A stretch of 64,000 bases of DNA from Arcuatula senhousia (taxonomy: Eukaryota > Mollusca > Bivalvia > Mytilida > Mytilidae). The translations under genes and the position numbers were made by a program. Positions 175-63,688 of this stretch are shown piece after piece. Positions within the stretch are counted from its first letter, which is position 1. The number at the start of each line of letters is the position of its first letter. A model generated the notes under the pieces. It made no database searches. It was not told the origin of the DNA and was given only the letters and a program-made list of their open reading frames with translations. The stretch lies in NCBI GenBank assembly GCA_963971305.1, contig CAXARO010000209.1, positions 205,494 through 269,493 of the forward strand, given 5' to 3'.

Positions 175-421
175 CTTCCATCAAGTTTCTCCAAGAAGAC
201 AGGAACTTGTACAGATATATCTGTGTGTACACTACGAGTGTCCTCTCCAGACATGTCATACTGAGGTTTACGTTCCAAACGTATCGGCTGTTTCCCTCGC
301 TTCTCTCGAATATCGTGTAATCTGTAGCTGGTAAAGTGTACATCAGTATCTCCATATCTATTGACATATTTGAAGGGTGTTTTGTCCTCAGGTTCAATGA
401 TACCTTTACCCAAGCAAGGTA
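175..421 (-). CDS. Exon 52: cytoplasmic tail
   Basis: An 82-codon hydrophilic exon rich in K, R, D and Y, e.g. [32 protein letters not shown] and [14 protein letters not shown]. No catalytic domain. Tyrosines in acidic or basic contexts could be adaptor sites (inference). Donor GTAATA; phase 2, so coding continues left of the window. Confidence 0.88.
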
Positions 422-3400: not shown

Positions 3401-6400
3401 AAAGAAGCAACAGGGAAGGCAAAAAAACTAAAATTTCATGGCTGGTTGGGTAATGAAACTATTGAAGACATATGTCGTCTGCATCTAAAAATATTGGGTA
3501 AACAGGAAGTACATGAGTTCCAGACATAAACTAGAAAATGTGCCTATGAGCCACAGGATGGCCCTCCTGTTTTTGAAATATTATTGACCCCCAATGTGTA
3601 TAACCTGGATTATGGACCTTACCTAAGAACTTAACCAAAGTTGTTCATGCATAAAATATAGGTCACAGTGACCTAATTTCTATCGTGTGGTCAAGCCCTA
3701 CCCAAGACCCATCTAGTGGTGAAATATTATTGACCCTCAACATCTAGTAGCCGAGTAATGGACCTTAACCAAGAACTTAACCAAAGTGTTACGGACGTAC
3801 ACACAGACAGATGGACAAGGGTAAAACTATATGGCCGATCCACATACGTGGTTGGGCCATAAAAATCATATGGAACTAAAAAAGGAAGCTACATGCCAAA
3901 TATCAAGATGCTGTGACATGAATTTGCCCTGAAAATGTGATGGAAATTTTTGTGAGGTTGCAGGATGATGAAAAATGGACGCTGAACAGCAAACATTAGT
4001 GCCAAAATGACTACTATATATCACTTTGGAACATGTTTCAGGTAACATTCAAAACACTCCTGAATTCCCGCCATATTCAATTTTAAAACAATCCTTACCT
4101 CATAAGATTCAATGTGTGTGATAAAAACATAAACTTACAGAATAAGTAAGAAGGTTGTTGTCAATGACAGATATAGCTACAACATCTCCTGGACTTCTAC
4201 TGATAGAGTTAATGTTGATGATGGGGTCACTGTAAATAAAAAAGAAGTACAAAAATATATGAACCATTTTATACTGTCACAAGACAAATATTAAAAAGTG
4301 TTTGAGCATATTTTTCTTTTATAATAATAGAACACATTGTAACATAATATTAAACATAATAGTGCAGCACATAAGTCAGAAATGACATGGATTTTCTGAT
4401 TACATTTCTGTACATTTCTAAATGCATCTCTATTTAATCATGTCAACTCACGCTACAGTATTGAACAAGACCTCCACATCAGCACCAGTATTAGATGTAC
4501 AGGTTACAGACACAGGGATGCTCTGACAGTTTACACCATTACATAACTGCTGCTGGTACTCTGAGTTGACGGCAGTAAATGTATTCCTGATGCTAGACTG
4601 GAGAGAGGCTATCCTAGACTGACAAGATGGAGTCAACTCATAGGTGATCTTTAGTAAGATGTTTACTGTTCTTCCAATGGCAGCTGGAGATAGAAAGAAA
4701 GGGGATTGGTTAGGGAAGAAGCAGAGAGGCACCAATGGGGCATTGGAGTGTCAAAAGTCTGAATGGGCAACAACAAAACCTGTCAACACAAACAAGAATA
4801 GCACGAAGAAACACAAAACAAAAAATCAAACAAACAAACAGATGTCAACAGCATGAACTCAAGTTGAACAAGAGTGAAAGCCTGTAAAAACTAAATTATT
4901 TACTAAATTATAAAACTATCTAAGTTAAGAAGATCCTTTAAACTAAATTATATAATAACATCTTGTCTTGTATTATATTCTTATAATTAATATAAACATT
5001 CAAAAGTAATCTCTTAAACGAAAATGACACAACTAACTATCAAACACCCATCTGAATCTAAAATTGGTGGGATGACATTACATTGCTTATAAATCCATAT
5101 AGTACACTTTGAAATTTTGGTTTTCTTAACAATAAATTGAAAGAAAACTAAATAATCTAAATAAAGGGGTTATATCCATGACATTGTCGTGGTAAAGCAT
5201 TTTTTACCTTTAAATGTATAAAAATTTAAATTGTTAAAATCAATTGATATGTAGATAGAAAACAATTAATGGTTCTGAAATAACCAGCATATGGGCAGCA
5301 TTTCAACTATACTGTGGTTTCATTAATATTCGTGGGGTATCAATTTATCAAACATTGATTTATATGCTTCAAATTTTAGAACCATGAATTCAAGAATCCA
5401 ACCACTAGTGGTTTCTTATCAACAACAAAAAATAGGGCATCTAATGGGACATTAAATGATAACCTGCCACGATATTCATCAATACTATAGTTAAATATAT
5501 TTTTATACTATACTGTATATACTATACATCTACATGAGACAGAAGAGGAATGAGTTATCTTTGTTAGACCAGAAAATTTCATCATATTCAAAGTTGGAAA
5601 ATTTACAAAATTGCAAATCTTCAATAATGTTTTTCGGATCATCCTGAAAATTTAACTTGACCTGTATTTTATTGTACTCAACAGCTGTGCAAAATATCAT
5701 CAAAATCTCTTCACCCATTTTCAAGTTATCATTCAGAAACCTTGGGGGGCGGACAGATGGACAGACGGAGTGATGGATAGACACCGAAAGAAACTGAGGG
5801 TATAACATAATACCTCGCCATTTCATGTGGCAGGGTATAAAAATTTATTCCCCCTCAAAACTTAATTAATCCACAATATTTGATAAACCTGGAGATGCTC
5901 TAGATACATGTATGTTAAAATAATCGACAATAGGGAATTAATATCATTTTTACCTGCACAAGGTGGGTATACAAAAGGTTCAAGCCTCTCTTCCTGATCA
6001 AACATTCCATATTTACTACAGGTATAGTAGTATGGCCCAGGCTGGGACGGCTGGTTCGTAATTTGGTTACACTGTATCCTACATATCTCTACATTGTCTG
6101 AGGGGTTACTGCACGTCTCTGTACCACCAGTGGGCACAGCAGGAGAGATGGAGGCACATGTGGTCCCTGAAATGAAAAATAATCTCTACATTGTCTGAGG
6201 GGTTACTGCACGTCTCTGTACCACCAGTGGGCACAGCAGGAGAGATGGAGGCACATGTGGTCCCTGAAATGAAAAATAATCTCTACATTGTCTGAGGGGT
6301 TACTGCACGTCTCTGTACCATCAGTGGGCACAGCAGGAGAGATAGAGGCACATGTGGACCCTGAAATGAAAAATAATCACTACATTGTCTGAAGGGTTAC

Positions 6401-9400
6401 TGCATGTCTCTGTACCATCAGTGGGCACAGCAGGAGAGATAGAGGCACATGTGGACCCTGAAATGAAAATAATCTCTACATCGTCTGAGGGGTTACTGCA
6501 CGTCTCTGTACCACCAGTGGGCACAGCAGGAGAGATGGAGGCACATGTGGACCCTGAAATGAAAATAATCTCTATATTGTCTGAGGGGTTACTGCATGTC
6601 TCTGTACCACCAGTGGGCACAGCAGGAGAGATGGAGGCACATGTGGACCCTGAAATGAAAAATAATCTCTATATTGTCTGAGGGGTTACTGCATGTCTCT
6701 GTACCACCAGTGGGCACAGCAGGAGAGATGGAGGCACATGTGGACCCTGAAATGAAAATAATCTCTATATTGTCTGAGGGGTTACTGCATGTCTCTGTAC
6801 CATCAGTGGGCACAGCAGGAGAGATGGAGGCACATGTGGACCCTGAAATGAAAATAATCTCTATATTGTCTGAGGGGTTACTGCATGTCTCTGTACCACC
6901 AGTGGGCACAGCAGGAGAGATGGAGGCACATGTGGACCCTGAAATGAAAAATAATCTCTATATTGTCTGAGGGGTTACTGCATGTCTCTGTACCATCAGT
7001 GGGTACAGCAGGAGAGATGGAGCCACATGTAGAACCTGAAATGAAAATAATCTCTACATTGTCTGAGGGGTTACTGCACGTCTCCGTTCCATCAGTGGGT
7101 ACAGCAGGAGAGATGGAGCCACATGTAGACCCTGAAATGAAAATAATCTCTACATTGTCTGAGGGGTTACTGCACGTCTCCGTTCCATCAGTGGGTACAG
7201 CAGGAGAGATGGAGCCACATGTAGACCCTGAAATGACAAATAATCTCTACATTGTCTGAAAGGTTACTGCAGGTCTCTGTACCACCAGTGGGCACAGCAG
7301 GAGAGATAGAGTCACATGTAGACCCTGAAATAAAAAATAATTTCTACATTGTCTGAGGGGTTACTGCATGTCTCTGTACCACCAGTGGGTACAGCAGGAG
7401 AGATAGAGCCACATGTAGACCCTGAAATGAAAATAATCTCTATATTGTCTGAGGGGTTACTGCATGTCTCTGTACCACCAGTGGGCACAGCAGGAGAGAT
7501 GGAGGCACATGTAGACCCTGAAATGAAAAACAATCTCTACAATGTCTGAGGGGTAACAACAAATCTCTATACCACCAGTGGGCACAAGGAGGGAGAAAGA
7601 GGCACATGTGGACCCTGAATAAAACATAGGACATTTTATACATTGGAATACCTATGATTTAAGATATGGAGCTATTTCTTAGCCCCATTTAACTATCTGA
7701 ACCACCTCTAAAAATCCTTGTGTAGATAGTTTAAAAAAAAATTATTTATTGAATAGCACTAACTTTGTAATTGCCCCTCTATGTGCAATACCTTTTTCTC
7801 TTCAACAGAAACTTATGCTACATAGAATAATGTCTCGCCTGTCGGCACCATCAGAGAACTCATTGAAGGTCTAGCTGGGCCTTTTTTTTTCAAAAAAGTT
7901 AAGGTCAAGGTCATGTGACAGATGACATAATTCCATTTAACCATCATAAAAATGTCTGAAGTGTGTTCTAGATACCATAGTTATAAAGAAACAATGAAAA
8001 AAGACAAACATTCACTAAGTCATTCAACCATGAAAATGGGGTTGAGGTTACATTACATGGTGACGTCAGTTGTGTATACCATAATCCCCAAATATCAGAT
8101 GCCTAGCTATAATATTATAATTTTTACTTAACTCATTTTCCACCCAAATATCATCTCCATTCACAAAGTCATTGACCCGTTAAAATGGGTTCAGGGTCAC
8201 ACAACATGGTTTCAGTTGTGTAGACAAAAACCCCAAATGTCTGTATACCAAATATCAGATGCCTAGCTATTATACTTTTAACTTAATTTATTTTCCGAAA
8301 AAGATTTAATTGTCCTAAAAAATCATCTAAGTCCACAGTGTCACTGAACCATGAAAGTTGTGTCAAGGTCACAGGACATGGTGTCATTTTCACTTAATTC
8401 ATTTTCCACAAAAGTCTTACAAAGGTTTTTTTGGCCCGAAAAAAACATCTGTGTTCAAAGAGTCGCTGAACCTTAAAATTGGGGTCAGGGTCAAACAGCA
8501 TGGTGCCAGTTGCGTGGACCATAACCCCAACTGTCCATATACCAAATATCAGATGCCTAGCTATTATACTTTTCTTGTAATTCATTTTCCACAAAATTAA
8601 GTCTTACAAAAAAGTTTACACCGTAGCCGTCGCCGGAAAGTAATACCTTTGTCTCGCCTTCAGCGACTTAAGTCGCAGGCAAGACAAAAATCAAATTTAC
8701 TTACTTTTATTGTAAAACCTAAACACACAGACAGCTGCATTGTTATCTGGGTTGTATGCCACTGATGATATGGCATAGGTACTCCATGTCATGGTATCTG
8801 TCATAAAAGAGAAAGAAAATGTTACATTTCAGCATTTTTCGGATAATGCTGACCAAAAGGTACATGAGTCATAGGTCATAAATACCGTACACAGAATATT
8901 TTAGCCATGATGCCTTAAAAGAATACTACAGATTCCCAAAAGTCTAGCAAAGGGGAAGTTATTTGAAGCAAAATGCTACATATAATTTGTTACTACATGT
9001 AATGCAAATTGTAGTTAAAGTGGATAGAAAAGTTTTATTGATTTTTCTTCAACATCTAGAGTTCTAGTCTTTACTTAAAACATTGTTCCAGTTTCTTAAA
9101 TTTAAGAAATCAGTTTGTGTGTTTAATTCAAACTTCTACAAAATTAGCCAAAAACTCAATGACAAATTGGTTGTTAAAACAGTATAACCTCAACCATTTA
9201 ATAGCATTTCTTCGTAACAGTTGCATCAAATTAGGTGTGGAATTTTAATGTACCTCCAGATCTCATGTTAAAAAGTTCTCTGTCAGCACCACTAAAAGTT
9301 GCCTCTGTAAATGTAGGGGAGCTAATCCTAGCAGTAGAAACCTGAAACTGGTCTGCTGGACAAGTAACAGTTGGAAACACAGAGGCTGAAAAAGACATTC

Positions 9401-12400
9401 ACATGTTACAGAAGAAGAGTACTGTTGTTTCATAATTATTCGTGGTTTTCATTGGTGGCATTGATCAATGAAATTTGATACACCATTGAAAGGAAAATTA
9501 ACATTGATATTTATGCTGCAGACTTCAGATGCACAAAATTATGAATCCAGGAACTGATTGTTTTTTACCAAACCACGAAATTAATATCAACAAAAATAAA
9601 TGAATCCAATATATACAGAATTTGTAATTATTTTTTTTTTTTCTGAATAATTTCTTACAAAATGCATTTACATTATTTGAGCTGGTTTCTTGTCTCATCA
9701 CATCAATATGTTTAACAAATTTATTTCTAGAATTCAAAATATAAGGTAAACAGTATTGATCTCTTACAAGAACAACTCACCAAGATTACAAGTAGCAGTG
9801 GTCCTACAAATGCCTGCTGACAGTTCACTCTGAAAGTCAATCAACATAGGCCCCTGCTCTATGAGGGCCATGATAGGAGTGTTGATAACATTACTACTGG
9901 GTAAGAAGTTGACATTGCTATAGAGGGGGCTGACTACGCCAGTATAGGAGAATTCTTCCTTGGCCAGGATCAGACGAGATATCTTCCCAGAAATGCTATT
10001 TGATGTTGAAACTGTCTTGGTTGTTGAGTCATAAGTTCCTCCAATTACTAAATATCCACTATAAAAATAAAGATGATTCTATTTTTATTTGCAAAAATTT
10101 GTTCAAAGCCACTAAATATGTTCAAGGGAAAATATTTAACCAATGAAAGGACAACTTAAACACATATTTCTAAAGAAAGACTAAATTAAAGAATTGCCAT
10201 GGAATAACTTTTTCTTTAATATTATACTGTAAATCTGTTTATACATACTACATGTAGTTAATGATATCTAGACTAGTATTTAAAAAAGAAACTTTATTTC
10301 AATATTTAGAACAAATACATGTAATAAAATCTTCTTACACCTCCTATCTTAGAACAATTTCTCATCTACTTACTGAGCTGGGAGTTGGTAGCCAGTGCCA
10401 ATATTAGCCTGTTGTTCTACAAGTGTGTTATCGACATACACAAACACACGACCAACATCAGCTGGAGGTCCTGCATTCAATGCATTCCACGTAACCACAA
10501 CGTGATGCCACAGACCGTCACGGATGTTCTTGACATTGTTACCAGTACCGTACTGCATGCTGTATGTGTTAGAATTAATTCTACCCGAGACTCTGTGGCT
10601 GCCAATAACCAGGATCTCCTCAGGTGGATTTGTCACAGAACTGAAAAAAAAAACCGAAATTTTATATAATAAATGTATTCAAGATAAGATTAAAATTCCA
10701 AATTAAAAAAAAAAAATAGAAGAAAAATGCTCAACAGTTAGACATTTGAACATCCTGTGAAATTCTAGACTTGCTCTTTGCACTAAAATGGCCATTCATA
10801 CATTCAAATTTCCTATAAAAAAGACCAATTTCTATTTTTATATTGTTCTTGTTGGTGTTTGCTGGTTTTGTCTCTGCCCTTTCGGACTTTTGATATTCGG
10901 ATACCCCATTGGTACCTCTGCTTCTTTATAATAATTTGCTCTATTATGACCTTGAAATAATAAAAAACAAACCAAAATCAAAACACTTACTTTAATTTAT
11001 ATCTTAAATAAACATAACTTTTCTAGCAAATCAAAATAGAAACACGTTACTTTAATTTTTACTGTACATAAACCTTGTTTTTTTTTTCAAGTGTTAAAGC
11101 CATACTTTTTTTCAAAATCACTTACTCTGTGGCATACAGTGACAGTATTGTTTTAGTTGTTGTGGATGTAAATCTAACCCACAGTGATACAGACAGTTTG
11201 TTGGTAGCCAGACCAAAGACAGAGCTAGCTGTTATACCCTGGATCTCTCCACACATCAGACCTGGTTCTACCAGTATGTCAAACACATAACTCAAGTCTG
11301 AAAAAAATAATAAGTATCCACTTAACACAAAGGAATCAAAATGTTTTGATGGAACAATATAAATATATACTTTTAAAATGAAACATGTAAAAGTTTTAAG
11401 CATAAAAGGTTATAGAGAAGCATGTTAAACATTCCATATACGAAATACTATGGGATTCTCTCAAAGTTATATGAAAAAAAGGATAAATTTCCCAAAAATC
11501 TATAATAACATTATGCAAATCTAAAATCTTCCATCACATTAAATTCAAAATGAGAAATATAGCATAAGCAGTTTGCTGAACTTAAATTTTACCAATATAA
11601 GTAATTTTAACCAGACAGTTAATGAAAATGAAGATAGTTGACCTATCATCTCTTAATCCTGTTAATACTAGTACTATCATTAAATAAAAAAGATAAGACC
11701 TTATGAGAAGACTGCAATAATTTACCTTTATCACAATTAGCCCCTATCTTGCCATCATTACATCTACAGGTATACATATTTACACCATCTATACATGTCG
11801 AGGCTGTGGGACACGGGTTACTAGCACACTCATCAATGTTGGTCTGACAGTTGGTACCAGTATAACCCGGCACACAGTTGCACGTGACAGAGTTGGCCGT
11901 CTCAATACACGTCCCACCGTTCTGACAATAGTTCAGGGAACAGGTAACAGTCTTCTGATTACAGGTAGGACCTTGATAACCTGAAATAGGTCAAAATAGC
12001 CATAAAGAAGAGTTCACTTGAAAATAATGTAACAGTAAATTAACATGTGGAATATCTATCGATACTGCTCTTAGATAAATACAAATATTTAATTCCAAAA
12101 ATTATTTTGTATTCAAATAGATTCAAAAGATCCAACTTTAAAATTTGCATGTTTTATTGTATGATATATCGAACAGAAACATTTTTTTCTAGATGCAAAT
12201 GAATTTAAAGGAACAACCTTTCAAAAAAACTTAAAATGTTTCAATAACACAAATTCCTAAAAGCTTAGAAATAAACCAACCTGAGGCACATTGACAAGTG
12301 GGCTGTCCATTCTGAAGTGTACATGTACTGTTAGGTCCCACACAAGGCTGTGTTATGTTACACAGATTATAGTCTAAATGACATGTGTCTCCTCTGTAAT

Positions 12401-15400
12401 TGGCTGGGCACCTGTCAATAAAGGGATAACATTATAGTTACAAATGTTGACATTGAAAAGTTTGAAAATTACGAGTTGCATGATTTAGATGAATAAAGGA
12501 TAAGTAGAGAAATTATTATGTCCACACTTAAAGTTCCCAAGCATATTTGAAATACATGCATTTAAAGAGCTGTTGAATATCTTTCTGTTAACTTTTATTT
12601 CCATCAAAATAAAAATTGAGAAAAACTATTAAGTTTAACATTGTGCATCTGTGTATGTATTGTTTTTCCTAAAAATGTCCTTTTTTAGAAAGTGATGCAC
12701 TTTAGAAACTAACAAAATCAAAACTTGAGATCATTTAACATTGGAATACATTAAACTGGTACTTACATGCACTGGTATCCTGTCACAGTATTATAACATG
12801 TAGCACTATTCAAACATGGTGAGTTAGGGTCACAGTTATCCACAATGTTTTGACAATTGTTTCCATAGTAACCAGTAGCACATGCACACTGGTAACCAGG
12901 ACTACCAGATATGAAAGAGCATGTTCCACCATGTTGGCAGGGAAAACTCTGGCAGTCTGTTGCTCCTTCCTTTAGAAAGAAGAAAATTGAAGAGTTTAAA
13001 ATAATGGCTATTATATAGTTTGTGAGTAGGATATTTGTGAGTCTTTGACATCACTGCTAAAATATTTTTTAGCTAATGTCTCTCCTTCATGTTTATAATT
13101 CCTATATGTCTTTCCTGTTTCAGAGAAGCAAGAAGATAAGCTATATAAATATCTTTTCTCAAGTTCAAGTTCGAAGTTTTGAAATGTTATAAATTCAATA
13201 CCGGTAGTTAAACATAGTATTTTAGTCACAACACAATGACAAACTTACTGTACAGTTCTTTCCTCTATACCCAGGTTTACACTGGCAGTAGTAATCATTG
13301 ATTCTATCATGACACATAATTGTGTTCTCCACCAAACATGGGTAAGGGTTACAGTTGTCTTTGTTGTCTATACATATACTTCCTGTTCAAAGAGAGATAA
13401 CTCTAAATAAATGTTTTATTTCACGAGTTCAAGTTGCTGAATGCGGTTTTGTTGTTCTGTGTGTGTGTGTTTTATGTTGTTCTGTGTGTGTGTGTTTTAT
13501 GTTGTTATGTGTTTTGTTTTGTTATGATGTTTTTTTGTCTACCGGTTTTGTCTTCGTCTTTACGGTTTTATGATGCTGATTACCCCTTTGGTACACCTTT
13601 GCTTCTTTTATTTCAAGTAAAGATACACATAATTATTTTAGCTAACTTTACCTACCATTGTTTATTTCAGTTAATGGACAGGATAATGTGAAATTAAGGC
13701 TTACTTTTAATAACAAAATGTATGTGTAATGATTGTTTAAAACACCTTATTCCTTCGATCACTTGTTGATTGTCAGACTACCGTATAGCGGGTTATTTCA
13801 CGGTTTTTGTGTCACAAGATATGTGAAAAATGTTTGCAGGTTTTTATTTTCGCGGTTTGTGAATGCATTTGTATATGATTTCTATAAGATGGCTATTTTT
13901 GCGGGATTTATCTTAGCGATTTCCCTTCACCCGCGAAAATTAAACCACCTTGAAAATTACCTGCTATACGGTATGTAATTGTTAGCGCCTTACCTCCTGT
14001 TCCTGTTAATGGACAAGCACATGTATAGCTGTTAACATCATTTATACATGTGCCTCCATTTAGGCATGGGTCTCCTGCACAGTTGTTGACAATGAATTGA
14101 CAGCTTGGTCCTGAATACCCTGGCACACATTTACATATGTAGCCACCATAGGAGGAGATACATGTGCCACCGTGAAGGCAGCTGTTTGTATCACAGTAAT
14201 TCACCAACTGACAGACTCCACCAACTAAAATAGACAAGATAAAAGTAATTAAAATTAATAGCAAACATCTTCTATAAAATTTACCTATAAAGTTAATAAA
14301 CACAAAAAAAGAATGATTCTGAATTCTGGTGTTAAATAAATGAAATGGCAATTTTATTAGAATAAATGTTTAAATTCTATAAAAATGCAATGCAATGTAG
14401 GAAAAAGTTACAATATAATATGTAAATGATAAAAGTGATGCCTAAGATTTCCTTCAAGATTAATTACATAATAACAAATGTGTCCATTATGATAAATGTT
14501 CATTCTTATTACATGTATCAGAAAAAAAAAATAGACCCCTCCATGGCAGCTAATTTTTCATAAAATTCAAGGAGTAAACAATATTGATCATTGTGATCTT
14601 AACAATCTAGTAAAAATTAAACTTTAATTTTATTCCATAATGTAATAGAACACAAAAAAATCACAAAAACCAAGTTAGAAAACTTAAAGCCAATAAAAAC
14701 AAAGTCCTTCATTCTTAAACCAATAATAACAAATATATACTAATAAATGTAGAAAATGTGAAGCTGAATTTATGTATTTTTGGTACATGGAATATTAAAG
14801 CAAAAATAGCTAGATATTCAAGCTAAGTTTTAATAACAAAGTATAAAGACTTTGAGATTTTTGTTATAAGAATAGAAGCTTATACTATTTAATATTGATA
14901 GCATAAAGGAAATAGAACACCTTTACTTCAATAGTCTCAGAATTTTACAAATTTCTTTAAAGAGGAAAAATAACATGCTTTTTGTAATTTCAACTTGATT
15001 ATTCATGCAAAAGGAGGTTCTGATGAGTTGCACTTTACTACCGCTCTATACAATAACCAATTTCTAACTAGTGTAGGTTACCTATTTACTCTGTGACAAA
15101 AGACTTGACAATTTAGAACACGAAACCAATTTCTAACATCTTATGGATTTTGCAAGGATGTGACATTGTTTAAAATAAATGTGAAATTCAAGATAACATT
15201 TTATACTATACAAGATATCTGAATGAAAACTGCACATTCAATAAATGTTTATCCTAAAGGACTTCGATATTTACTACATGGTAAATTTTAAAAGAATAAA
15301 GAAGGAATGTGTCCATGGGATACATATGCTCCCGCTGGCACCAAACAGTAAGTAGAAATCTTAGAAGTCTAACAGGTCTGAAAGTCGCTTAGGATGTACA

Positions 15401-18400
15401 GTTTGACATACTGAACTATCCTACGAAGTTTCAAATCATTCTCATGTATTGTTTCTAAGAAAAGCTGGACAGAAATTGGTACAGACAGACAGACATGAGT
15501 AAAACTTAATGCCCCCCACATGTTATCACGGGGGCATAAAAAAGAGCTAGTATTGCATTTCAAATATCACTTTTTAATGCTTGTATTTTGTGTAAGAACA
15601 AGGCTGTCTGTGAATAGTCTACTGTAATTTATAACATAGCATTAGATCTCATCAGGAGTTTCTACAGTGGTTAATATTGCAGGGTATCCCTTCCTGAAGC
15701 GGTCTACCTAACTCACCTTCTAAAAGAGCTGGAAAAAGTAGCACCATATTATCCATTAAGAAATTTTACACAAGAAAAAGAAACTTGTAAAAGTGACCTA
15801 TAAGCATCAACATAAGGAGTTATTTCATAACCATTTTTCAATGAAATATAATGGAAATTTTATTTCATAGACATGGACAGAAAACATATGTGTACTGCAA
15901 TTTCTTCTGTATACTTTTTAGCTTAATTCAAAATGTCCAATTTAGAGACATATATTTCTTTAAATAGTCTTCAGTTGGACAATATCCAGATTAATCTTTG
16001 TATAATATATATTTTTATATTAAGTTTTAGTAATGGAGAAAGAAGTTATGTGGTTACTATCACATTTGTATAACTTTGTGTTGTTATATTTTCTTTTTAA
16101 CTATTGTTATATAAAAATTATTTTTTTAGTAGACATTTCATTTACATGTATAATCTGCAAATATATAACATTCCTCTTCCCATGTTATTTTTGTACACAA
16201 TTTTAACATCTTTGGTTAAATCATGGTGCTATTTTTTTTCAACAAATTAACTTTATACTAACTGTCATTATATCCGTTGGGACACATGCAGTATGGTTTG
16301 GACTCCGGGTAATAATCGATACATGTCTGTCCTGACGCACAGCTTCCCGAGCAGATGTTCGAGGCTCCTCGGATGTGACAGAAGACACCAGAATATCCTG
16401 GAGCACAGTTACAGCTAAAACCATTTGTCCCATCAATGCAAGTTCCCCCGTTAGTGCATGGTGAGGACACACACTCATCTACAAAATAGAATGTAAATCA
16501 GTTTAACAAAAAAATAATTTCACAAATTAATTGCATATAAAAAGAAATGTCTAGGATTGTTTCTGTCATAAAGGGCAAATTAAAGCCTGATGTGTTATTA
16601 AAAGAGATTCTAATATGGACCACGCCCATGAACAAAGAAAACCATGACGACAAGCCGTGTGTAAATTTCCAATAAACACTGGTTTGACGTCACAGTTAAC
16701 GCTAAAATCGATGACGTCATAATATATTTTGTGCAAAAAAACAACAAAAATGGCAAACATTTTGTCTTGCACTATAGGTCAACGGAAAACACAAAAATTG
16801 CATATTAAAATAGAAATAATCCATGGCCGCCAGTGGTTTATTGGAGATTTTAACATGGGTTGCCATTGGTTTCGTTATTATTTTACCCTGAGTGGAGCGC
16901 AGTGGAGCAAGGGGTAAAATAAGCGAAAACAATGGATACCCATGTTAAAATATCCAATTTCTTAAGTAAATCACTTCAACCGTAAATAGTAAAATACAGG
17001 TATGACTCAAATGAATTTTGCTCTTAAGGTGTCTCGGGGCTATTAGAATTCTACTATAGATTTTTGTCATTTTTGGCTCATTGATAGACCTTAAAGCATA
17101 GATACAAAATATCGAATAAAAAGAGGGGGTCACCGTTCATTTTAAAGCTCTAGCAGCTTTCTAAAAATAGCAAAATTTCAATATTTTTATATAGGATATA
17201 TAGGGAGAAAAGCTATAGAGGCATCTAAAGAAGAACTCCTACTATAGAATCAGCTCAAAATCTGAAGGAAAGTCCCTTTTCTAAAGCTCTTCGAAGTTGT
17301 ATAAAATAAACATAGGGTCACCGTTCATTTTTTCAAGATATTCATGAAAATTGAAAATTTTCCTATTTATTCTATATAAATTATCTCCCTTTGATTAAGT
17401 ACGGGAAATTCTAAAAATGATTAAAAAGACCTTTATTGCATTACAATTGCTCGTAATTTGTTAAAATATGTTATAATTTATAGTTTTTGTCTGCAATATC
17501 CAGTTAATTTATCAATTTTATACAAAATACCAATATGTGCAAAAAGATGCTCAGTAGAAAAGCCTCGAGCCACCTTAACTCATTACTTGAAGTAAAATGT
17601 TGCATGTGATATAAAGGAGTCAAGATAAAATCTTTATTTCACAAGCTAACAAGATTGTAGGTTACATTTTTATCCTAAAGTGAACAAGGAATAACATCAA
17701 TGAGTTCTCAAAAATATAATCCCCAATGCAAAAAAGGCTCAGTCAAACTATTTCCCCTTTATGATATCTGACAGCAATGAAAATTCTTCATTCACATCTC
17801 CATAAGATGTAATTCAATCAAAGTTTCATCAAAATCACACAAAGTGTTTTTGGAGCTGTTGTGCTTAAGAGATATGATGACAGACAGACAGACAGACAGA
17901 CAGATTGGAAGACAGGATGATTTCTATATACACCTGAATTTTTGTCCTACCTATATTTGTTTCACAGTCTTCCCCTGTATAACCTAAAGGACAGACACAC
18001 TTCCTACGGATGCTGCCATAGGGGGTACATTGTCCATTGGTGCAAGGCTCGTCAACACAAGGAACCTTGGGAGTTGTACATCTGGAAGATAGAAATGTCA
18101 AACATTAATCAGGAAGAGATTTAAGACAATGTTAGAGACATTTCATATAAATGTTGTACCACATGAAAATTTCAGAAAGATTGTACTTGAGAAATAATGG
18201 CTTAAATTTAAAGCATCTAAGAAGCATATTAATAATGAATAAGGCTTGATGGTTTATGGTAATTTTGGTGTGTTGATAGATAACATGGTTACATAATGTG
18301 AACTTCTCAGTATTTCATCATTTCATAGACTATGCATTTAACACATGAAATAGAATAATTATTTGTAAGACATTGTAATCTATGTTTTCATTCTTTTTGT

Positions 18401-33400: not shown

Positions 33401-36400
33401 AATGAACTCAAACTAAATAACTTGCACATAAATGTCCCATTTAGCAATTTAGGCAGGAACAAGGGGTTGCACTAAGTCGTGCTAAGCATACCCCCACTCG
33501 GCCATTCAGAAAACAGGAAGTAGATGACCGACTGACCTGGAAAGGGGAGGCACGATACAACTCATTATGCTAAAGCTGTATACCAAATTTAAAATCAATC
33601 TCTTCTCTAGAAGCCGAGAAATCTGTTACGAAAAATTGTCTATTTTTGACCCATAAAAAGTCTAAGTCAGCTCAGAAAACAGGAAGTAGATGATGGACTG
33701 ACCTGGAAAGGGGAGGCAAGGTATAACTAATCATGCTGAAGCTGTGTACCAAATTTGAAACCAATCCATCCAGTAGAAGCATGAAATCTGTTACGAAAAA
33801 TTTCACTTTTCAAATTTTTTACCCTAAAAAGTCTAAGTCGACTCGAAAAACAGGAAGTAGATGATGGACTGACCTGGAAAGGGGAGGCATAGTATAACTC
33901 ATCATGCTGAAGCTGTGTACCAAATTTGAAACCAATCTATCCAGTAGAAGCCGAGAAATCTGTTACGAAAAATTTCACATTTCAACTTTTTTCCCCTAAA
34001 AAAGTCTAAGTCGGCTTGGAAAACAGGAAGTAGATGATGGACTGACCTGGAAAGGGTAGGCATAGTATAACTCATCATGCTGAAGCTTTGTACCAAATTT
34101 GAAACCAATCCATCCAGTAGAAGCAGAGAAATTGAACCGGACGGACAGACGGACGGACAAGGTGATTGCAATATAGCCCCCTCTCTTACGAGTGGGGGTA
34201 TAATATTCAAGCCATTTTTTTTACCTTGACAAACAGGAGCTGTTTCCCATAAACTGTTACTCTGACAGGAGATTGTTAAGTCTGTACCAGTTGGTGGGGC
34301 GTAACCAGTATTACAGGCATAAACAACCTGGTCCCCACCAAATAGTCCAGTGGCAGATAGTAAATAACCATTGGCTATCTCTGGGACCAGTCCACAAAAT
34401 GCCTCTGAAAGAGACAAATAAACAAATAAAAATATCTTAGGGTATTTAGTTTTACAAATCTATTTTTAAAAGCAGATGAAAAGATACGATGAAAAGATAC
34501 CTATATTGACATATTTCATGCTAAATGTAGCTTTGTAACTTTTTTCATTCAATCAGTATTTGTATAGAACTAGCCAAAGCCATTTACATCTTTTTTTAAT
34601 GACATAGAAATTAGTCTAACAAAAGTACTGATATCAAATACAAGACTCAAAGTTAACATGGCATGATTTTTTCATTCTCTTTGGATTTTTTTACATTACT
34701 TTATGAAAGAAAGAAACTTTGCTTGTCAGCAAGTGTAAATCAAAATATATAACTATTTCTGTCAAAAACTTACGAGAACAAACTGGTACAATTTTATCGT
34801 ATTCTCCATCTGGCTGACAAGTCAATACAACACTTGTCTCCCCTGCATACGGAGCTTGGAATGTGTAACCTGTCTTACATGTCACTGTTGAAGTATCTCC
34901 AGAATATACAACCAAACGTACAGGGCTAACATCATAAGATGTGTCAGATAACAAAAGACAGGCTGTTATATAGGTTGCTGTAAATCCCGCTCTGTTGGTT
35001 ACGGCACTGGTGATGAACTTCACTGCTAGTCCTATGTCAGAGACCATGGCTGGTGGCTTGGTGAAGTAGCCATTACCTGAATGGAGTGGTGTCCCCTGAT
35101 CGTCATCTCCTAGCCAGGCCTATAACGAAAGCTGACTTGTATAATAAATAGAATGCAGTTGTAAAAGGGTATATGTTTTAACATACTGAAAATCAACACA
35201 CTAAAAAGAATATAATTCAAATAACCTTTATAAGCATTAATGCTATATAACTATTAAAAGATAACTGGTAATCTACATTTGGCTGCTTGTTTTTCATGTG
35301 TACAATAAAATACATACAATGATGATTTATATTAACGCAAATATGCCCAAAAGACATTTATACACACATCTCACATTTTTTCTGCACTAACTGAACCATG
35401 AAGTTGATGCAGGAATATCATTTTATGATGATTTTGGCATGCTTATATCGTAATGTCTATGGGTATAAATTTCATGATGATTTCATACTTTTTCATAGAA
35501 AAGCAACTAAAACCTATAGGTAAACCTTAAAATCCTGTCCTATGAGACAGGAACAGTTTTATGAATTATGCTAATATTCAAATGCTGATGTGTATGTGTA
35601 TAAAGATTCATGATGATACAATACTTCCTTCATTGTAAAAGAAATTCAACCTTTAGATAAATCTAGTATAACATCAACCTTTTTGGGTGATTTTTAATTA
35701 ACCATGAAGTTGATAAAACTGGTACAATTTCAGAAAGATTTTGTTTATTTATACCCTGACGTTTCATGATGATGCAATCCTTCATCTTAAGGATGCTCGC
35801 TGGTCTTGTTTTGGTATTTTTGTCATTTTTTCGGAATCCTCTGGATTTTACCATCAAAATTGGGTTAAAAATTTTGCCCACGAACCCCCTATTTTCTTGT
35901 TATTAATGTATTTAATATGTCATAAAGAGGTTATAGACAAAGTTTTATCAAATCCTATTTATTCTGTCATGGGTTTTTACAGCTAAATAGTGCTAATGGT
36001 AAACCTATGAAAAAGTCAGAGAAAACCTTTTCCCGCCAAAACTTTAACGTCAATTATCTTGAAAACGAGGTCACGAACCTATGAAATTTTTTTGCTTATT
36101 TTGTTTCTTTTACTATTATCTTTTCATTTAAGGCATCAAATTTGAAACCTATTTATTTTCAATAATAGTAGCGAACATCCTTAAACCTGTAGGTAAATTG
36201 GGACAGATGAAAAGAGGAATGAACAGATTTGAACATTTTATGCCCCTTTTCTTCATAGACTGGGCATAAAAAGTTTGCAAAATATGATTTTGCCCCATTT
36301 ATGAAAGTGGTTCTATACATGTACAAAATAAATACATACCTGAACATAGTCATTACTGTCAATATCAAATTGGTCAAAGGTCAGGCGTACTTTACGACCA

Positions 36401-39400
36401 TTCATTGGTACAATGGACCAATAACATTCTAGAGCCCCAGGATAGTTAACAACATCATACCCTGGGCTGGAGATGGTCCCTGAATTAGCATGGAGCTCAA
36501 AGTTACATCCTGAAAAAGACATTAAATTTTGTGTTAGATAAGTTTAATTGAAAGACAGCAAGCAGCAGCAAATTAAATGGTCTTATCATGGATTTTTAAA
36601 CTGCTGCTGATTTATGATAGTTATGTTGTGTATACTAATTCCACATCTCATTATCTTCAATGCATCTTGAATAAGCTTAAAATGTCATCAATTTTTAAAT
36701 AAAATGCATGTTGTAATATTTCTTTAATGTTACCTAAAAGCAAAGAAACTTTTTTTTTGTGATGTACTTCCTCTCTATCCATCAAGCAGTTTATGAGATA
36801 TGTGGATAGCCAGACTGACAAGAGTTTTGTATAGACTTCCCGCACTCTGTTTGTAGAAAGTTAAATGATACAATAAGAATTCCTACCTTCCCTGTATGCC
36901 AGCAGTACACCTCTACACTTCAGATGCTCCTGTAGATTCATATAGACATAGAGATGGTTACCGGTAGAGAGAATAACTTCCCCTGCTTTACTGCTAGAGG
37001 TCAAGGTCTTTAATGTTGGATTAATGGGGTTGTCACCATCTTTAAAGACTACTGTATCTGATCCACACAAGTTGACATCTTTAACCTGTTGAAATATTTA
37101 AAAATAATTAGGTTAATTTTTATGTGTGTAATAAGTTGTGAGTTTTATTTTTACAATGTAAATTTTCGGAATCCTTAATGTAGGTTTGAAAGATCTGATA
37201 AATTTTATCCAATTCACAAAATATCTCATGAACGTAATATTATTTTTATCAGGAAAAACATTGCTTTAGTTACCAAATGCAACACCTTATGTGTACAAGT
37301 GTTAAAGTTAAAAATGGCCAGATTTTGTTAAACATGCATGGGACCCCACCCTGATGCTGTATACTAAAAATCAAGTGGCTGCCACTAGAAGATGCTGAGA
37401 AAACTGTTACGAAAATTTCTTCCTCGCCCGGTGCCCACCGTTTTATAACCCAGTTTTTCACTCTGTGAAACCTGCCAAAAAACATGTTTTTATCTTTTAT
37501 TTCTAGTGTGATCACATTTTTTTACTTTACCTCCACAGTGACAACATTGCTACCAGTGCTCTGTATAACCCATCTGGTCTCTAGATTCCCAGGGTAAAAG
37601 ACAGGATACAGAGGGGAGTAGATATACTGGTTATAGGATGTCCCTGTCAGAGTTCCTCCTAATCCTGGGACATTGGCCAACACTACAATTAAAATACAAA
37701 AGTATAGAATATTATAGAGTATTCTATTATACATTTGAAAGATACCAAAAAAGACACCGTTGAGAAAATTAAGGTTAAGTAAAAATACATGTTCAAGATT
37801 TATGATCAAAAATGGAAAGTTTACTTATCTTTGTGAAAAAGTTATAAAACACAATCTTATTAAATTTTGGAACTCAAAACTTGGTGTTGGGACTCAAATA
37901 CAATAAAATGAATACTTCTACATGGTTGAAATTTCACATTTTCTGTATTAAAATGTGTTTGTGAGGTTTAAATCTACTGATCATATTGGCTTTGAACATG
38001 AAAATCAAGATTGTGTGTGAAAATGTTGTTGACAGGAAATTCACAAAATAAATCCCTAGCAAAAATTTTCCCTTATACATTATCATTGTTGTCTAAATTC
38101 ATACCTGGGTACCCTGTCTGCTGTTCCTCCGGGCAAGTCTTGATGTACAGATCACAACAATTATCATCTACAGGGTTCACCATCTCTTGTAGTAGGAAGC
38201 AGGTATTGTTGTTCTTGTTATAGGAGAACCCCATACATGCCAGGGCATTGCCACCTTCGGTACATTCACTCTGACATCGTGTGTAGTCCTGGTTATTGTT
38301 CAGAATGAATGACACACCTATCTGGCCCACCTGATGCCTTTTGTTTGGGATCTTTGTAATTTGGCATTGAAAATCTGCAGAGAAAGATATATAATTTGTG
38401 AAAAAACAATTCTAGTTAGATAAGCACCATATAAAACATATTTTGTGGTGATAATGAAATAGGTACAATTCAATAAATGTATGCATCAAACTTGAATTCT
38501 AGTAAATGTATAATCTTAAATTTTGAAAAATTCTGTAACAGCAATTTTTTTTAATGTCATACTTATATTAGTTTCATTTTGAACAGTTTTGAATTTGTAA
38601 TTGTGAGAAAGGGATTCTTTTGTTCAATTTTATAATGGCTGAATGGTGATATTCTATAGGGAAAAAGTTTTGCTTTTAATGTTAGCGGATTTTTCTTTTC
38701 AAACCAACCTGTTCTCCAAGAAAATTTGAATCCACTTTCTTGTCTACTGGAATCTGATGTAAATCTAACATTCACAAAGTTATTTGAGCTAAGGAAAACT
38801 TGGTAACTCTCTGGCAGGGAACCTGAAAGTCTAGCCAGGCACTGACCATCTTTAAATGAGGGACTTCCATCAAAAAATTCCAAAACATCTAGATCTTTTT
38901 CTGTGGCAAACTGGGTGAACTGAAATGAACAATAATAAAATTTGATGTCTTGAGTTGATCAATAATCAATTAATATGAAAAAAAAGAAAATGTTGGGTTT
39001 TTTTTCAATTAAATTTGGATTAGAGTTTTTTTGCAGAAACACCCGGATATCTTCAGTAATTACGGTAGTATTGATGATAAAATCATTAATACTGTACATG
39101 TAATATGAGTTAGCTTTTTCATTTATGCAACTTTTACATGTATGTTTTACAACCACCTGGAAACTGAACTATTTAGGTACATGTATAATGTAATATTCGC
39201 AAATATGATAAAATCTTTTGAAATGAAACTAAAAAATACACATTGCTTGTTCAGTTATATAATCTTTATAAATTAGCTCAATCTAACATCATTAATCACT
39301 TGTATCAAAAGTGAACTTCAATATATAATTTTTCAATTGAAGATGACGAAAGTGAAAAAAGTCATAATAGATACTGTATTTAAAGTTGTTTTTGATGTCT

Positions 39401-42400
39401 TCATACTTTTAAAACTTATTTAGAAATAATATGTAGAACAAAATAGGTAATATCATATTGCAGATATACATGTACTTATTGCATATTGGAATTCATGATG
39501 CATAAAAACAATCAAATTGGATTTTAACAAACAGCAATCAATATTTCAAAACGTTATGAATAATTGATGGATAGAAGTCGATTCCTAACACATCCTATAA
39601 TTGGTTTGACACTAGGATCAAGTCAAATCCTATCATTTTAAATACGTTAAAAAATCAAATTTCTCCGAGTGAATGAACACTTGATGGGAGGGACAAAAAG
39701 AAAAGAATGAAATCAAAGAGAACTTTAAAACTTTAATTTTACTTGTCATTTGAAATAGTTCAATGGATTACTTATAAGACTTTGTAAGAATCTGTTCTAG
39801 TTTAAACATTTACATGACATTCAGAAGTATGCAATAAAACAGTCCATTGTTGTATTTTGAACCAGGATGTGTTCTCTGTGTTATACTTTTAAAATAAAAA
39901 AGACTAGAGAAATTAAGAGAAGGGTCTTTCTTAAATTGTTAACTGAATGCTGTATTTCACAAAAGTAGTAAAAAATCAATAAGTGATTGCCCCTACATCT
40001 TATGTATTAGGTATTGAAACAACACAATGTTAGTATATTCAACAAACATACAACATCTTCAAAGTAAGTGTTAGGGTTTTATGCCCTACTGGAGGCACAT
40101 GGGCCATGTAAGGCAATCAGGTTTTAAGATTGAGGAAACAAGGGTACCAGAAGAACACCATTGTGCTTAAGGTAGTTGCATCATATATATACATCATGTG
40201 CATAAAATATGAATGTGTTTAATGACCTGTTCATGCATATTTGTTTGTATGCATTTACAACTTTTACATGTTTAAGTAATGGATAATTGAAGTGATGTGT
40301 TAGTAAATATAAATGCTAAATGTAGGTCATTTTCTACTGAAATGTATTATTGAAATTATGTTAACACTTTTTATAGTATGCATAAATGTCTATATATATA
40401 AGAAAAAAAAGGAAAGAATAAATACAGGTACATGTATTTAAGAATAACAATTGTACATTTGTATCTTTTTGTGTGTGTGTGTGTGTTAAACCCATTTATA
40501 TTTTGTTTATATACATTGTTTAACTTTGTGTCAGATAGGGTATCCATTGTAAATGTTAATAGACAAATGAAAAATCAAGGTGCATTTGTTTGGTACATAT
40601 CCTGAATCAAAATGTAATGTAAAAAACAATATGACTCTATTGTAAAATGTTTTAACATTTTCAACATTAATGGTTGAAAATACATTAACCATAATATCTG
40701 AAGCCAAACATCTGTAACTTTTAAAACTATGCTAAAAAAAAAAAACAAAAAAAAACAATTTGAAAATTTGTAAAGTTTGATGCATTTCATAACCAAATAC
40801 AAAGAGCATTAAAAACCAAGTCTTGTAATTCTGTTTACATTATCACAGTGTTAAATTATTTCCCTGAGCTTGGTGCTAATTCAGGAAATGTACCAATAAG
40901 AACTATCTACATAACAAAACAGAACATGATTACCTGGGGTGTGGAAGGATTCGAAAGCTGAATAAACAACAAAATAATGTGACTACTTTCAAACAATGAT
41001 GTGATTTGTCTTTGTAAAAAAAAAAACTTCTTGTTGCTGCTGTTAATGATTTACCTATCTATAACAGTGAATAGTGTAATATTCTAATTTTCAAAAAAGT
41101 TGATGATTTCAAGGATTAGAAAAAAAAAAAATTATGAACATTTAATTTTTTTTCAAGGGTGAAATTTCAATGCATTTGAGAAAAACTATGGTTTGTGTAT
41201 TCATAAATTGCTTGTTTTCAGATAACTATTTTTCAAGCAAACCTGTAATATTTCCATTAGAAATCAAATTTTATGAAAATCCAGATTTTTATAAACATTA
41301 TAATTCTTTATCCATTGTTTCCCTAAACTTTTATCTAATGAACTTTATTTTCTTACAAAAAAAGAAAGAACAAAATATTTTGCAACAACAAGAAGAACAT
41401 TACAAAGACAGTGCTATAAATAAAACACTACAAAATGACTATGAAAAGAGAGACATTCATCTTTAAATTTCATTCTAAGTGACAAAAGCAATTTCAATCC
41501 AAAGTTTCTGTGATATTAAAATGATGAATTAGTATCAACAACAAGTAATTATTTACTCTTATATTTTCTGATTTCTGAAAATAAAATGTAAAAATGAAGC
41601 GCACACAGAAAGTTTAATAAAATGCAACTGAAATATAGATCCATTCAAGAGGAAAATGAAAAGCCTTTAAGGAACATTAACAACAAAATGTCTATAGGCA
41701 CTCTATATATTTGTCCATAATGATGAAATGACCACTAATCCTTGCAAATTCTAGTTTAAAAAGCTAAACAAGCAAAAATCCATAGACTATATACCTGTAT
41801 TTGAATTCTTTTACCCACTGGAGCCTCAATGGTCCAGAGACATGTTGAGCTAGCAGAATATTGGGAACCAGTTGTAGGCCATGTAATCTCTCCACTGGAT
41901 CCGTAAATATAAAACTTACAATCAGTTTCTGAAAGAAGACCAAAGCATTTATTACAATCTAAATATACATGGGAAAAAGAATATACATAAGTCCTATTCA
42001 CTAGTGATATCATCAAGATAGATATATAGTGATGAAGGCCTATGGCCAAAATGTGTAACAAATGAATAATTAAGTTCAACTTTTTATAAGAATCATGCAA
42101 AGAGCGATTCATGGGTGGAAAGCCTACACTAATTTATTTTTGATGTGTTACTCCTACTAGCACCCTGCTTTGATTTTTTGTGCTCTTTTTCCAAACTAGC
42201 CCTGGTCCTGAGAGAAAAAAAATATATAGAATGCATTGGAAAAATGTAAGAAAGGGAGATAACTCTTAAAATTGTCAATAATTTCAATAGAAACCATTGT
42301 AACAAAATGACAAGATTTCTCCCAGGACCAGGCAGTTATGAGAAAATTGTTATTTATTTCTTATTTTATATACTTTGAACTATCTTTCGTTAAAAATAAA

Positions 42401-45400
42401 CCACTGTAGCCTTTTATCGATGAATCACTTTTCTTCAATTTTGCATGATTCTTAGGTGGACTTCTACTTAATACAAATAGTTAATACAAAATAGTTGACA
42501 CATTCATGTAGTGGAACCAGCAGTTCCATCTCACAGCATTAATACTCTATATAAGACACAGAAATAGGGTAATATACAGTTGATAATTTTATTTATGCAT
42601 ACCTCCGAACCTAATAATTGTTGACTTCTGTTTTTGTTTATGTGTCTATTTGAAAATTAAAAATTTATTATGTTTAAAGCTGCTTGAAGAGGCTGACTCT
42701 ATAAATAGTATCCAAGACTTGACTTTACTTTTCGAAATGTTCAAATACTGATTCCAAGTACAAAATGCAGCAACTGCTGGTCACATTGAAGGCTGTTGGC
42801 TATTTTCCATTGTGGATATTTTAAATTGTTGTTTATATTGTAGGTTGTGTCGTGTACACTCATATTCCACATCTCATTATCTTCTATCCTTATCATGAAT
42901 ACATGCAAAAAAGAAATGATGCTGTGAAAAGAAATTTCTGATATAAAGTTTAAGTTTCGAAAAATTATCATGTAAGTAAAACTGAACGTCAGGAACTACA
43001 TTTTACTACATTGAAATCAAAACTTGTTTGACTTATATAAATATGAAGTCAAGCATGGCATAAAGTCATTATGAGATATTGATCACAACATTGAAACATT
43101 GTTTAACTTCCTGTGATAGTAATTACTCTTTATAAAATTAATGAATTCACACATTAAACTTGAATGTAGATAATTAGCCAGCTTCCTGCATGCATACATA
43201 TTACATTCTCTAACTACTCATGCTAAACATCCCATACAATGGAAATATATGACGGTGGAATAATGATATTATGAAAGTAGACAGATAGAGACAATAATCC
43301 ACAACAATAAAGATCTCAGATATAAAAATATGAATCAAGGGTAAAGAATTGAAAGATAGGTTGGTTGTATATGAATGAAACAGACAGTTTAAAGTGTCTG
43401 TAGTCTACTTTAAGTTTTGGAAAAAGTATGATAAAAATTTGTAACCTTACACAAAAAAATAAGTTTCATTGAAATGAGAAAGATATATTATTTTGATATT
43501 ATTTTGATTAAAAAACAAATTTAATCAGATCAGCAGATCTTGCTACACTTAACACCAATAGACCAAAAACATTGAAAACATTGAAAACTAAGTTGCTAAA
43601 ATTTACAAATAAGGTGGAAGTTCTAAATTATTTTCATGATTTATCCATTATGTCCACCCCCCAAATTTAGTCCTATAACAAAAACTCTTAACTTATTTAG
43701 TGTCCAAACATTTGTCTATAAAAATTTGATAGAAGTCTTGATATGAAAATAAAACAATTTTTTTTATTCAGGGCTATATGTAATGATTCCTTTACTCGAA
43801 TGATATGGCTTCATTTATATTCATGCAATGCAATATTAATAGTTTTGTTGGATATTCTATCAAGATATGAACTTTGATGTTAAACAACAAAACATCTTTT
43901 AGTCTACAATTACAAATATTCACATACACAAATATAAATGAAACCACAAAATCTCTATTCACATTAGTTTACAAAACATTCTCTATACAACTCCAAAAGC
44001 TAAGGAACTAGCTGAAAATAATATTAATGATACATTTATGAACCGAAAATCCAACACACATAAAATTAATAAAATGCATCCATTTTCCCATACATTTGCA
44101 CTCATTACCGTTATAAAAATCTGTCCAAGGGAGTGAAACTACAAGGAAATACATTGATTAAAGATATATAATATTTGGCTATAAGGCTTAATATAAACAT
44201 GCCAATTCGTGAAGAAGTAGGCTAATAAGTTTTTTTTAAAACTGACTATTTTACAAGCACAAAAAGATGATTATCAAATGGGGTTGACATCTACTAGCTG
44301 TGGAAATAAAATTTAAAATATTGAATAGGACAAAATATAACTTAAAACAACCCCAGTTAATTTTATTTAGAGAACATAACCCTTTTGACATTAAAAAAAC
44401 AAAAAATTTGTAAAAACTGTCACATTTCAAGTTCTATACACATGCAAGTTTCTTCTTAAATCATACTTAAAAAAATAAGTGAATAAAGATAATTTGAACA
44501 TTATATTATGTATCAATATATGTTTTAACCTGTGAATAGGGTGAATATATATACACATACGTCTTCTATCACTAATCATTTTCTAAAAGAGATATTATTG
44601 AACATTATAATTCAACCTGCAATCTGGAATTTATTTTCTACAAATATATTCTGCTTATACTTACGACAATTTCTTTCGTCTGAGTTATCGCCACAGTCAT
44701 CATGGCCATTGCAGATATTAGTACTCCCTACACACCTCCCTGTGGTCGTACAGCGAAAAGTGTCTGAAATAAACAAAATAGAGAATTATCTCCCCTGTTA
44801 CAGATGTTAGTATATCCCACACACCTCCACGTTGTAGTACAGCGAAATGTTTCTGAAATAAACAAAACAGAGATTTACATGTATCTCCCCTGTTACAGAT
44901 GATAGTACTTCCTAAACAAAATAATTCTCTCCTGTGTGTACAGATGCTAGTATTTCGTACACGCTTCCCTGTTATAGTACAACAAAAGGTATCTGATACA
45001 AACAAAACAGAGAAATATCTTCCCTGTTTCAAATATAGATGCAAATCTTTAGTACACCATTCCCCATTTAAGCATGTTCAGCATGTTTTTAATAGTTGTG
45101 ATATGTGAAGATCATATATGCATATATAAAATTATTTATAATCATGTTCAGTTGAGAGTAATTGTTTTCGCTAGAAAATTTTGTTGTTACACTACAGAGT
45201 ATTCATAAAATAAACAAACTGTATCTTTACCTGAGGGACAAGGTAACAATTCACACACAGACGGCAGCAACCTGTCACATGAGTCGATATACCACTTATT
45301 ATTGTCCGATCTGTTTACACGGGTACATAACCCTATCGTTGTATCTGGCTGAAAGTCTCCCCAAACTCCAACAGAGACGTCTGTACTTGTCCCATCGCTC

Positions 45401-58811: not shown

Positions 58812-59197
58812 ATATTGGTCTAAAACCGGAAATAAGAAATCTAATTTTTTTAATTAATCCCTGTCTAAAAGTTAACGTTACGCTTTATTGCGCATCATGA
58901 ATTAGTTTCTTCTGATTTACTATTATGTTCAGCTTCTTCTACCTAAAATAAACTGGCATGTTTTTTTTTCTGTTTGAGAAGAAAACTTAGATATTTTCTC
59001 ATCACTACTATAAGAACTTTCATTCTTAAAATACTGTTTTCGCATAAAACATATAAATAGTGAAAATCAGCGAATATTTTCCGGAATATACTTGTCATTG
59101 GTCCGTAACTGCTACAGTTTTAGTATGCACAATATCATTTCCGGTCAACACATGTGGGATTTTTTTTTTCAATTTTTAATCTTTTTTCTTTAATTTA
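58812..59197 (+). promoter_or_regulatory. RRP1: 5' flank of RRP1
   Basis: Region just upstream of the RRP1 start codon. It contains 'tttccggaatatac' and 'tttccggtcaac' motifs (ETS-like TTCCGG, often seen in housekeeping promoters; functional role inferred). The start site of transcription cannot be placed. Confidence 0.35.
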
Positions 59198-63631: not shown

Positions 63632-63688
63632 GTTATATTATTATATATAAAAACTAAACAAAAAGTTCTGAGTAGTAGACGCTTTTGA

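What the first reader, a model, noticed from the sequence alone, without database searches (positions are those of the whole stretch)
6167..45000. Repeated tandem amplification of exon-boundary half-exons in one gene
Five separate exons (6, 16, 17, 29, 45) each have tandem copies of only one half of the exon plus its adjoining splice site and some intron. Where the copies carry the acceptor they lie upstream of the intact exon (6, 45); where they carry the donor they lie downstream (16, 17, 29). This is what tandem duplication across an exon border must give, and it always leaves one intact exon, so it is tolerated. Finding it five times in one gene, at very different ages, suggests a gene-level tendency that could generate splice isoforms of a recognition-type receptor. 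I know of no named description of it.
Basis: partly seen in the sequence, partly recalled or inferred. Interest (0 to 1): 0.85.

Follow-up and report, generated by a model that had tools for sequence, protein, structure and literature searches.

The report
Half-exon tandem arrays in mussel gene
In one large mussel-like gene, five different exons each have extra tandem copies of just one end of the exon with its splice site; they are probably tolerated by-products of DNA duplication that the splicing machinery ignores, but some copies have changed in a way that looks protein-preserving and should be tested with RNA data.

Summary
Each extra copy carries one exon end plus its splice site, and one intact exon remains. 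A sixth, single diverged acceptor-side copy may sit at exon 25. The gene is not shown to be a recognition receptor: its closest match is a Mytilus galloprovincialis protein (64% identity, 99% coverage), colinear with arthropod proteins named uif. As simple alternative sites, 28 of 28 extra sites give a stop codon. The real site always makes the shortest exon and 46 of 47 introns exceed 250 nt, so exon definition would favour it. Best reading: tolerated border-spanning tandem duplications. Two points resist: border placement is denser than random (at least 5 of 8 arrays, p 0.009, post hoc), and donor-type copies diverge mainly synonymously (19 against 5; p 1e-5 to 9e-4 over 18 mutation models, post hoc) with donor sites unchanged at exons 14 and 15. 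Coding use as mini-exons is not excluded. No RNA or genome-wide data were reachable.

The parts
177..50431 (-). uif-like gene, 48 modelled exons plus a further 3' exon at about 177-470 whose donor was not found; first exon and 3' end not in the model
   Evidence: tblastn of Mytilus P0001 and unnamed P0002; neighbouring exons phase-consistent; Pfam domains
6085..7619 (-). array at exon 42: 16 copies (1 intact, 15 extra) of acceptor plus first 81 nt, unit 96/97 bp, with a 3-unit pattern
22178..22645 (-). array at exon 27: 6 donors (1 intact, 5 extra), unit 81/82 bp; each of the 5 extra copies is preceded by a C-rich tract and an AG that would make an in-frame 48-nt mini-exon
31105..31387 (-). 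array at exon 15: 3 donors (1 intact, 2 extra), spacings 89 and 103 bp
31750..32435 (-). array at exon 14: 5 donors (1 intact, 4 extra), spacings 124-157 bp
31540..31747 (-). relic of a fifth extra copy of exon 14, split by an inverted-repeat stretch (arms 31571-31622 and 31641-31692), donor lost (read by eye)
44709..45017 (-). array at exon 4: extra acceptor copies starting at 44852 and 44992, plus a truncated piece 44882-44918
24075..24131 (-). possible sixth case: one diverged acceptor-side copy upstream of exon 25 (intact border 23967-24021)
   Evidence: score 40 against a null maximum of 28.5 (up to 40 null draws)

Best explanation
Short tandem duplications (unit about 80-160 bp) happened independently across one border of at least five exons of a uif-like gene and were then expanded, in exon 42 to 16 copies. 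Such a duplication always leaves an intact exon whose authentic site lies nearest the other end of that exon. With long flanking introns the exon is recognised as a unit, the shortest exon wins, and the extra sites are mostly silent. Their occasional use would give stop-containing transcripts. Shown: anatomy, reading frames, site scores, intron sizes. Inferred: duplication mechanism, splice choice, near-neutrality.
For: Extra copies sit on the side that border duplication dictates in five of five arrays. 28 of 28 extra sites lead to a stop if used as simple alternative sites. 46 of 47 introns exceed 250 nt, the range in which splice sites closest across the exon are reported to be preferred (PMC9225289, passages read). 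Acceptor-type copies together diverge without clear synonymous excess (25 syn, 27 nonsyn, p 0.15-0.43). The oldest exon 14 copy has decayed: split by an inverted-repeat stretch, donor lost and a stop codon by eye. Exon 42 shows unit and 3-unit periods, as repeated unequal exchange could give.
Against: Donor-type copies diverge mainly at synonymous sites (19 against 5; p 1e-5 to 9e-4 across 18 mutation models). Their donor sites -3 to +8 show no change in 5 of 5 (exon 14) and 3 of 3 (exon 15) copies, while intron from +9 differs by 44% (32 nt) and 60% (only 15 nt compared). Pooled over all five arrays the excess also stands (44 against 32; p 0.0005 to 0.023). One acceptor-type copy, 44852 of exon 4, shows it alone (9 against 3, p 0.019). 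Border placement is denser than random. For acceptors the passages of PMC9225289 report a reduced upstream preference under exon definition, weaker support than for donors.
Confidence: 0.6

Rival explanations
1. Donor-type extra copies (exons 14, 15, 27) are used as small in-frame cassette exons that add half a Sushi or EGF module; an AG inside the copied exon end serves as acceptor.
For: 19 syn against 5 nonsyn and unchanged donors. The 5 extra exon 27 copies have an in-frame, open 48-nt mini-exon, acceptor score 5.6 against a lowest real score of 5.4; exon 14 copies 1 and 4 have a 78-nt one (scores 3.6 and 2.8). Skipping nearer copies gives upstream introns of 116-361 nt (exon 27) and 486 nt (exon 14 copy 4).
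Against: At the thresholds used, exon 15 has no in-frame open candidate (0 of 2 pairs) and exon 14 copies 2 and 3 have none. The exon 14 acceptors score below every real one. From one copy to the next the intron would be only 34 (exon 27) or 67 nt (exon 14), against a gene minimum of 222. The 48- and 78-nt inserts carry three cysteines each (by eye), an odd number.
Confidence: 0.15
2. The arrays are variable-number decoys that tune output: more copies, more mis-splicing into stop-containing transcripts, less protein.
For: 14 of 15 extra exon 42 acceptors score within the range of real ones (the oldest, 5.2, just below 5.4); extra donors at exons 14, 15 and 27 score as the intact ones. 28 of 28 lead to stops.
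Against: No expression or copy-number data; exon definition should suppress them.
Confidence: 0.12
3. Not exclusive of the best explanation: copies were traded between diverged alleles by unequal exchange or gene conversion, so that mostly synonymous differences come from the coding exon and not from selection on the extra copies.
For: Mosaic sharing of variants among exon 14 copies; bivalves are very polymorphic (recalled).
Against: Copy 31781 of exon 14 differs from the intact exon by 6 synonymous and 0 nonsynonymous changes in the 73-nt core, which seems deep for allelic variation; exon 14 intron parts differ by 44%.
Confidence: 0.25
4. Assembly artefact at some arrays.
For: Reads were not available; the exon 27 copies are nearly identical (mean p-distance 0.021).
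Against: Copies of the other four arrays differ at many positions.
Confidence: 0.05

Closest known systems
[quoted passage not shown]
   Same: Duplicates the 3' end of an intron plus the 5' part of the next exon, as at exons 4 and 42; splice signals come ready-made.
   Different: There one duplication made a new, expressed intron (106 RNA reads as reported). Here there are up to 15 extra copies, five loci in one gene, and no usable intron between copies is evident except weakly at exons 14 and 27.
AGGT exon-duplication model of intron gain (Rogers 1989, as described in PMC4974935 and PMC2891723; passages)
   Same: Tandem duplication creates new donor-acceptor pairs.
   Different: That duplication lies inside an exon; here it crosses a border and leaves the old intron in place.
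Tandem whole-exon duplication with mutually exclusive splicing (Dscam type; recalled)
   Same: Tandem exon material beside a coding exon in a large extracellular protein.
   Different: No copy here is a complete exon.
uif / uninflatable family
   Same: CUB, Sushi, EGF, HYR, ephrin-receptor-like and LamG domains; the Mytilus relative is colinear with two arthropod proteins named uif from near the N-terminus to just before the membrane segment, at 28-36% identity.
   Different: No FA58C domain found here or listed for the Mytilus relative; related arthropod entries also bear other names (SVEP1, Fibropellin-1); Mytilus edulis has a second colinear relative, P0005.

Membership tests
uif / uninflatable-like proteins | CUB, Sushi/CCP, EGF and HYR domains in one large protein | tested here: met
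   CUB 3 stretches, Sushi 3, EGF 6, HYR 1 (model protein of 2713 aa, some exons missing)
uif / uninflatable-like proteins | N-terminal C-type lectin-like domain | tested here: inconclusive
   The start of the domain was not in the query; exons 1-3 align to P0001 aa 31-164, but PF00059 is not in P0001's precomputed list
uif / uninflatable-like proteins | FA58C domains | tested here: not met
   No PF00754 (query incomplete) or in the list for P0001; hence 'uif-like', not 'a uif'
uif / uninflatable-like proteins | Long-range colinearity with arthropod proteins named uif | tested here: met
   P0009 chain covers 2662 and P0011 2945 of 3275 residues of P0001; both chains end at residue 2989
Intron gain by border duplication | Duplication spans an intron-exon border | tested here: met
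Intron gain by border duplication | New intron is spliced in mRNA | not testable with these tools
   No RNA data; in-frame candidates only at exons 14 and 27
AGGT exon-duplication intron gain | Duplicated segment lies within an exon | tested here: not met
   Units of the five arrays contain intron sequence
Tandem whole-exon duplication | Copies are complete exons | tested here: not met
   Each extra copy has only one exon end

The most novel reading that the evidence does not exclude
Donor-side half-exon duplications create in-frame mini-exons that are kept by selection, a standing route by which cysteine-rich modules gain half-module inserts. Coding-like divergence and unchanged donors of the extra copies at exons 14 and 15 would be its trace.
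Probability: 0.15. Interest if true: 0.75.

Novelty: new variant of a known kind. Interest (0 to 1): 0.45.

Why it matters
Border-spanning duplication is a suggested source of new introns and exons, but well-supported recent examples are few (PMC4974935). One gene with five or six such events of different age is a natural series for asking how cells choose among identical splice sites, when extra copies stay silent, and whether some become real exons.

Tried and rejected
Simple alternative-site isoforms: rejected as a source of longer proteins, 28 of 28 stop (a further AG at 44968 also stops). Dispersed-repeat explanation for the five arrays: no further matches in the window apart from the exon 14 relic; genome-wide not testable. 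High GC of the affected exons as a cause: ranks 3, 11, 14, 39 and 44 of 48, no pattern. More border duplications: a scan of the 48 exons (30 best rows printed) gave one candidate, exon 25; exons 19 and 24 did not beat their null maximum; exon 16 (score 52.5, equal to its null maximum) was not looked at further and may reflect EGF likeness to the exon 15 copies in the same intron. The null segments were drawn from all introns, arrays included, so its z-scores for exons 15, 27 and 42 are too low. Mini-exons in exon 15: none in frame at the thresholds. Three other intron arrays in the gene (33509-34132, 3574-3787, 8146-8596) were counted as non-border; only the 3574 family is shown to recur in the window (with 53072). 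The split of arrays into donor and acceptor type was made after seeing the data.

Paper searches (10 of 10): among the papers listed, by title and start of abstract, I saw no description of several half-exon arrays in one gene. Searches returned 0 papers; some searches listed 20 of 37, 12 of 14093, 12 of 197 and 12 of 175, one search listed 5 of 6. Papers: PMC4974935 section 5 read whole and passages of the rest; PMC2891723, PMC9225289 and PMC3340373 passages only; the others from listings.

Rows dropped: one search kept minus-strand hits of at least 38 bits, best per place. One search failed because the exon at 177-470 had no donor candidate; one search left it out. The protein built lacks several exons that one search had not found.

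Full report
What is there. The window holds, on its minus strand, most of a large animal gene. A protein pieced together from predicted exons matched a Mytilus galloprovincialis protein at 64% identity over 99% of the query, and an unnamed record (P0002) at 58% over 100%. Using both as guides, a model of 48 exons came out with every neighbouring pair in phase. The source is therefore a bivalve, probably a mytilid (inference). Domains are CUB, Sushi, EGF, HYR, ephrin-receptor-like, laminin G and LDL-receptor A, with a hydrophobic segment in exon 48 (read by eye). The Mytilus relative is colinear with two arthropod proteins named uif over 2662 and 2945 of its 3275 residues. I call the gene uif-like. 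FA58C domains, given for fly Uif (PMC3340373, passages), were not found, so I do not file it as uif proper.

The arrays. Five exons have tandem copies of one end. Exons 4 and 42 have extra acceptor ends upstream; exons 14, 15 and 27 have extra donor ends downstream. In exon 42 there are 15 extra copies of 96 or 97 bp, with a 3-unit pattern. Mean exonic divergence runs from 2% (exon 27) to 26% (exon 4). A scan of the borders found one further candidate, a single diverged acceptor copy above exon 25.

More than chance? Placed at random in the gene, a unit spans one border with probability 0.16 to 0.25. Five of five gives 2e-4; at least five of the eight arrays of period 60 or more that I counted gives 0.0085, and 0.016 or 0.027 if nine or ten are counted. 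The figures are post hoc, the eight were chosen by hand, and no genome-wide baseline could be had, because the genome search did not answer in nine tries.

What the extra sites would do. 14 of the 15 extra exon 42 acceptors score within the range of real acceptors of this gene (the oldest, 5.2, is just below the lowest real one, 5.4), and the extra donors at exons 14, 15 and 27 score the same as the intact ones. Used as plain alternative sites, 28 of 28 run into a stop: 15 at exon 42, 5 at 27, 4 at 14, 2 at 15, 2 at exon 4. In each array the authentic site makes the shortest exon. With introns over 250 nt (46 of 47 here), transcriptome and minigene data favour the sites closest across the exon; the passages are clearer for donors than for acceptors, where they report a reduced upstream preference (PMC9225289). 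That may be enough to explain why the gene tolerates the arrays.

What does not fit. If extra copies were neutral, even with a perfectly conserved intact exon, at most 35-46% of differences between copy and exon should be synonymous, depending on the mutation model. Acceptor-type arrays agree when pooled (25 syn, 27 nonsyn; p 0.15-0.43), though one copy of exon 4 alone does not (9/3, p 0.019). Donor-type arrays do not: 19 syn, 5 nonsyn; p 1e-5 to 9e-4 over 18 models. By array: exon 14 10/2, exon 15 7/2, exon 27 2/1. All five pooled: 44/32, p 0.0005 to 0.023. Splitting by type was decided after seeing the data. The donor window -3 to +8 is identical in 5 of 5 exon 14 and 3 of 3 exon 15 copies, while the intron from +9 differs by 44% and 60%, the latter over 15 nt only. 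Against selection: the oldest exon 14 copy is broken, split by an inverted-repeat stretch and without donor, and good in-frame acceptors are scarce. The 5 extra exon 27 copies could form open 48-nt mini-exons (acceptor 5.6, lowest real 5.4); exon 14 copies 1 and 4 could form 78-nt ones with poor acceptors (3.6, 2.8); exon 15 none at the thresholds. Exchange between diverged alleles could also give mostly synonymous differences.

Compared with what is known. The nearest description is intron gain by duplication of an intron-exon border in a potato RdRp gene (PMC4974935, section 5); the AGGT model is a cousin (PMC2891723, passages). Among the papers listed by ten searches I saw no account of repeated half-exon arrays in one gene. 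That is weak evidence of absence: several lists were cut and only open-licence papers are held.

Verdict. Observation confirmed; the receptor-diversity reading is not supported in its simple form; the most likely account is tolerated border-spanning duplication. The coding-like divergence of donor-type copies is the part worth a follow-up.

Noticed in passing
window 23967-24131: Possible sixth border duplication: a diverged copy of the exon 25 acceptor and first bases lies about 110 bp upstream.
   Followed up: partly
window 59180-63685, + strand: Opposite-strand gene with Nop52 matches (PF05997; by recall the ribosomal RNA processing protein 1 family) in three of three pieces tested.
   Followed up: partly
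window 31571-31692: Inverted repeat (arms 52 nt, 77% complementary), perhaps a small mobile element, inside the relic of the exon 14 array.
   Followed up: no
window 3574-3787 and 53072-53547: Two arrays of one 146-bp repeat family; the 3574 query hits the other at 76-86% identity.
   Followed up: no
window 22178-22645 and 6085-7619: Units 81/82 (exon 27) and 96/97 (exon 42) bp are near multiples of three; an 81-bp unit and runs of 96-bp units read through openly, the others shift frame.
   Followed up: partly
P0005 (Mytilus edulis): A second, more distant colinear relative (34% identity to the query, 4065 aa) suggests two uif-like genes in mussels.
   Followed up: no
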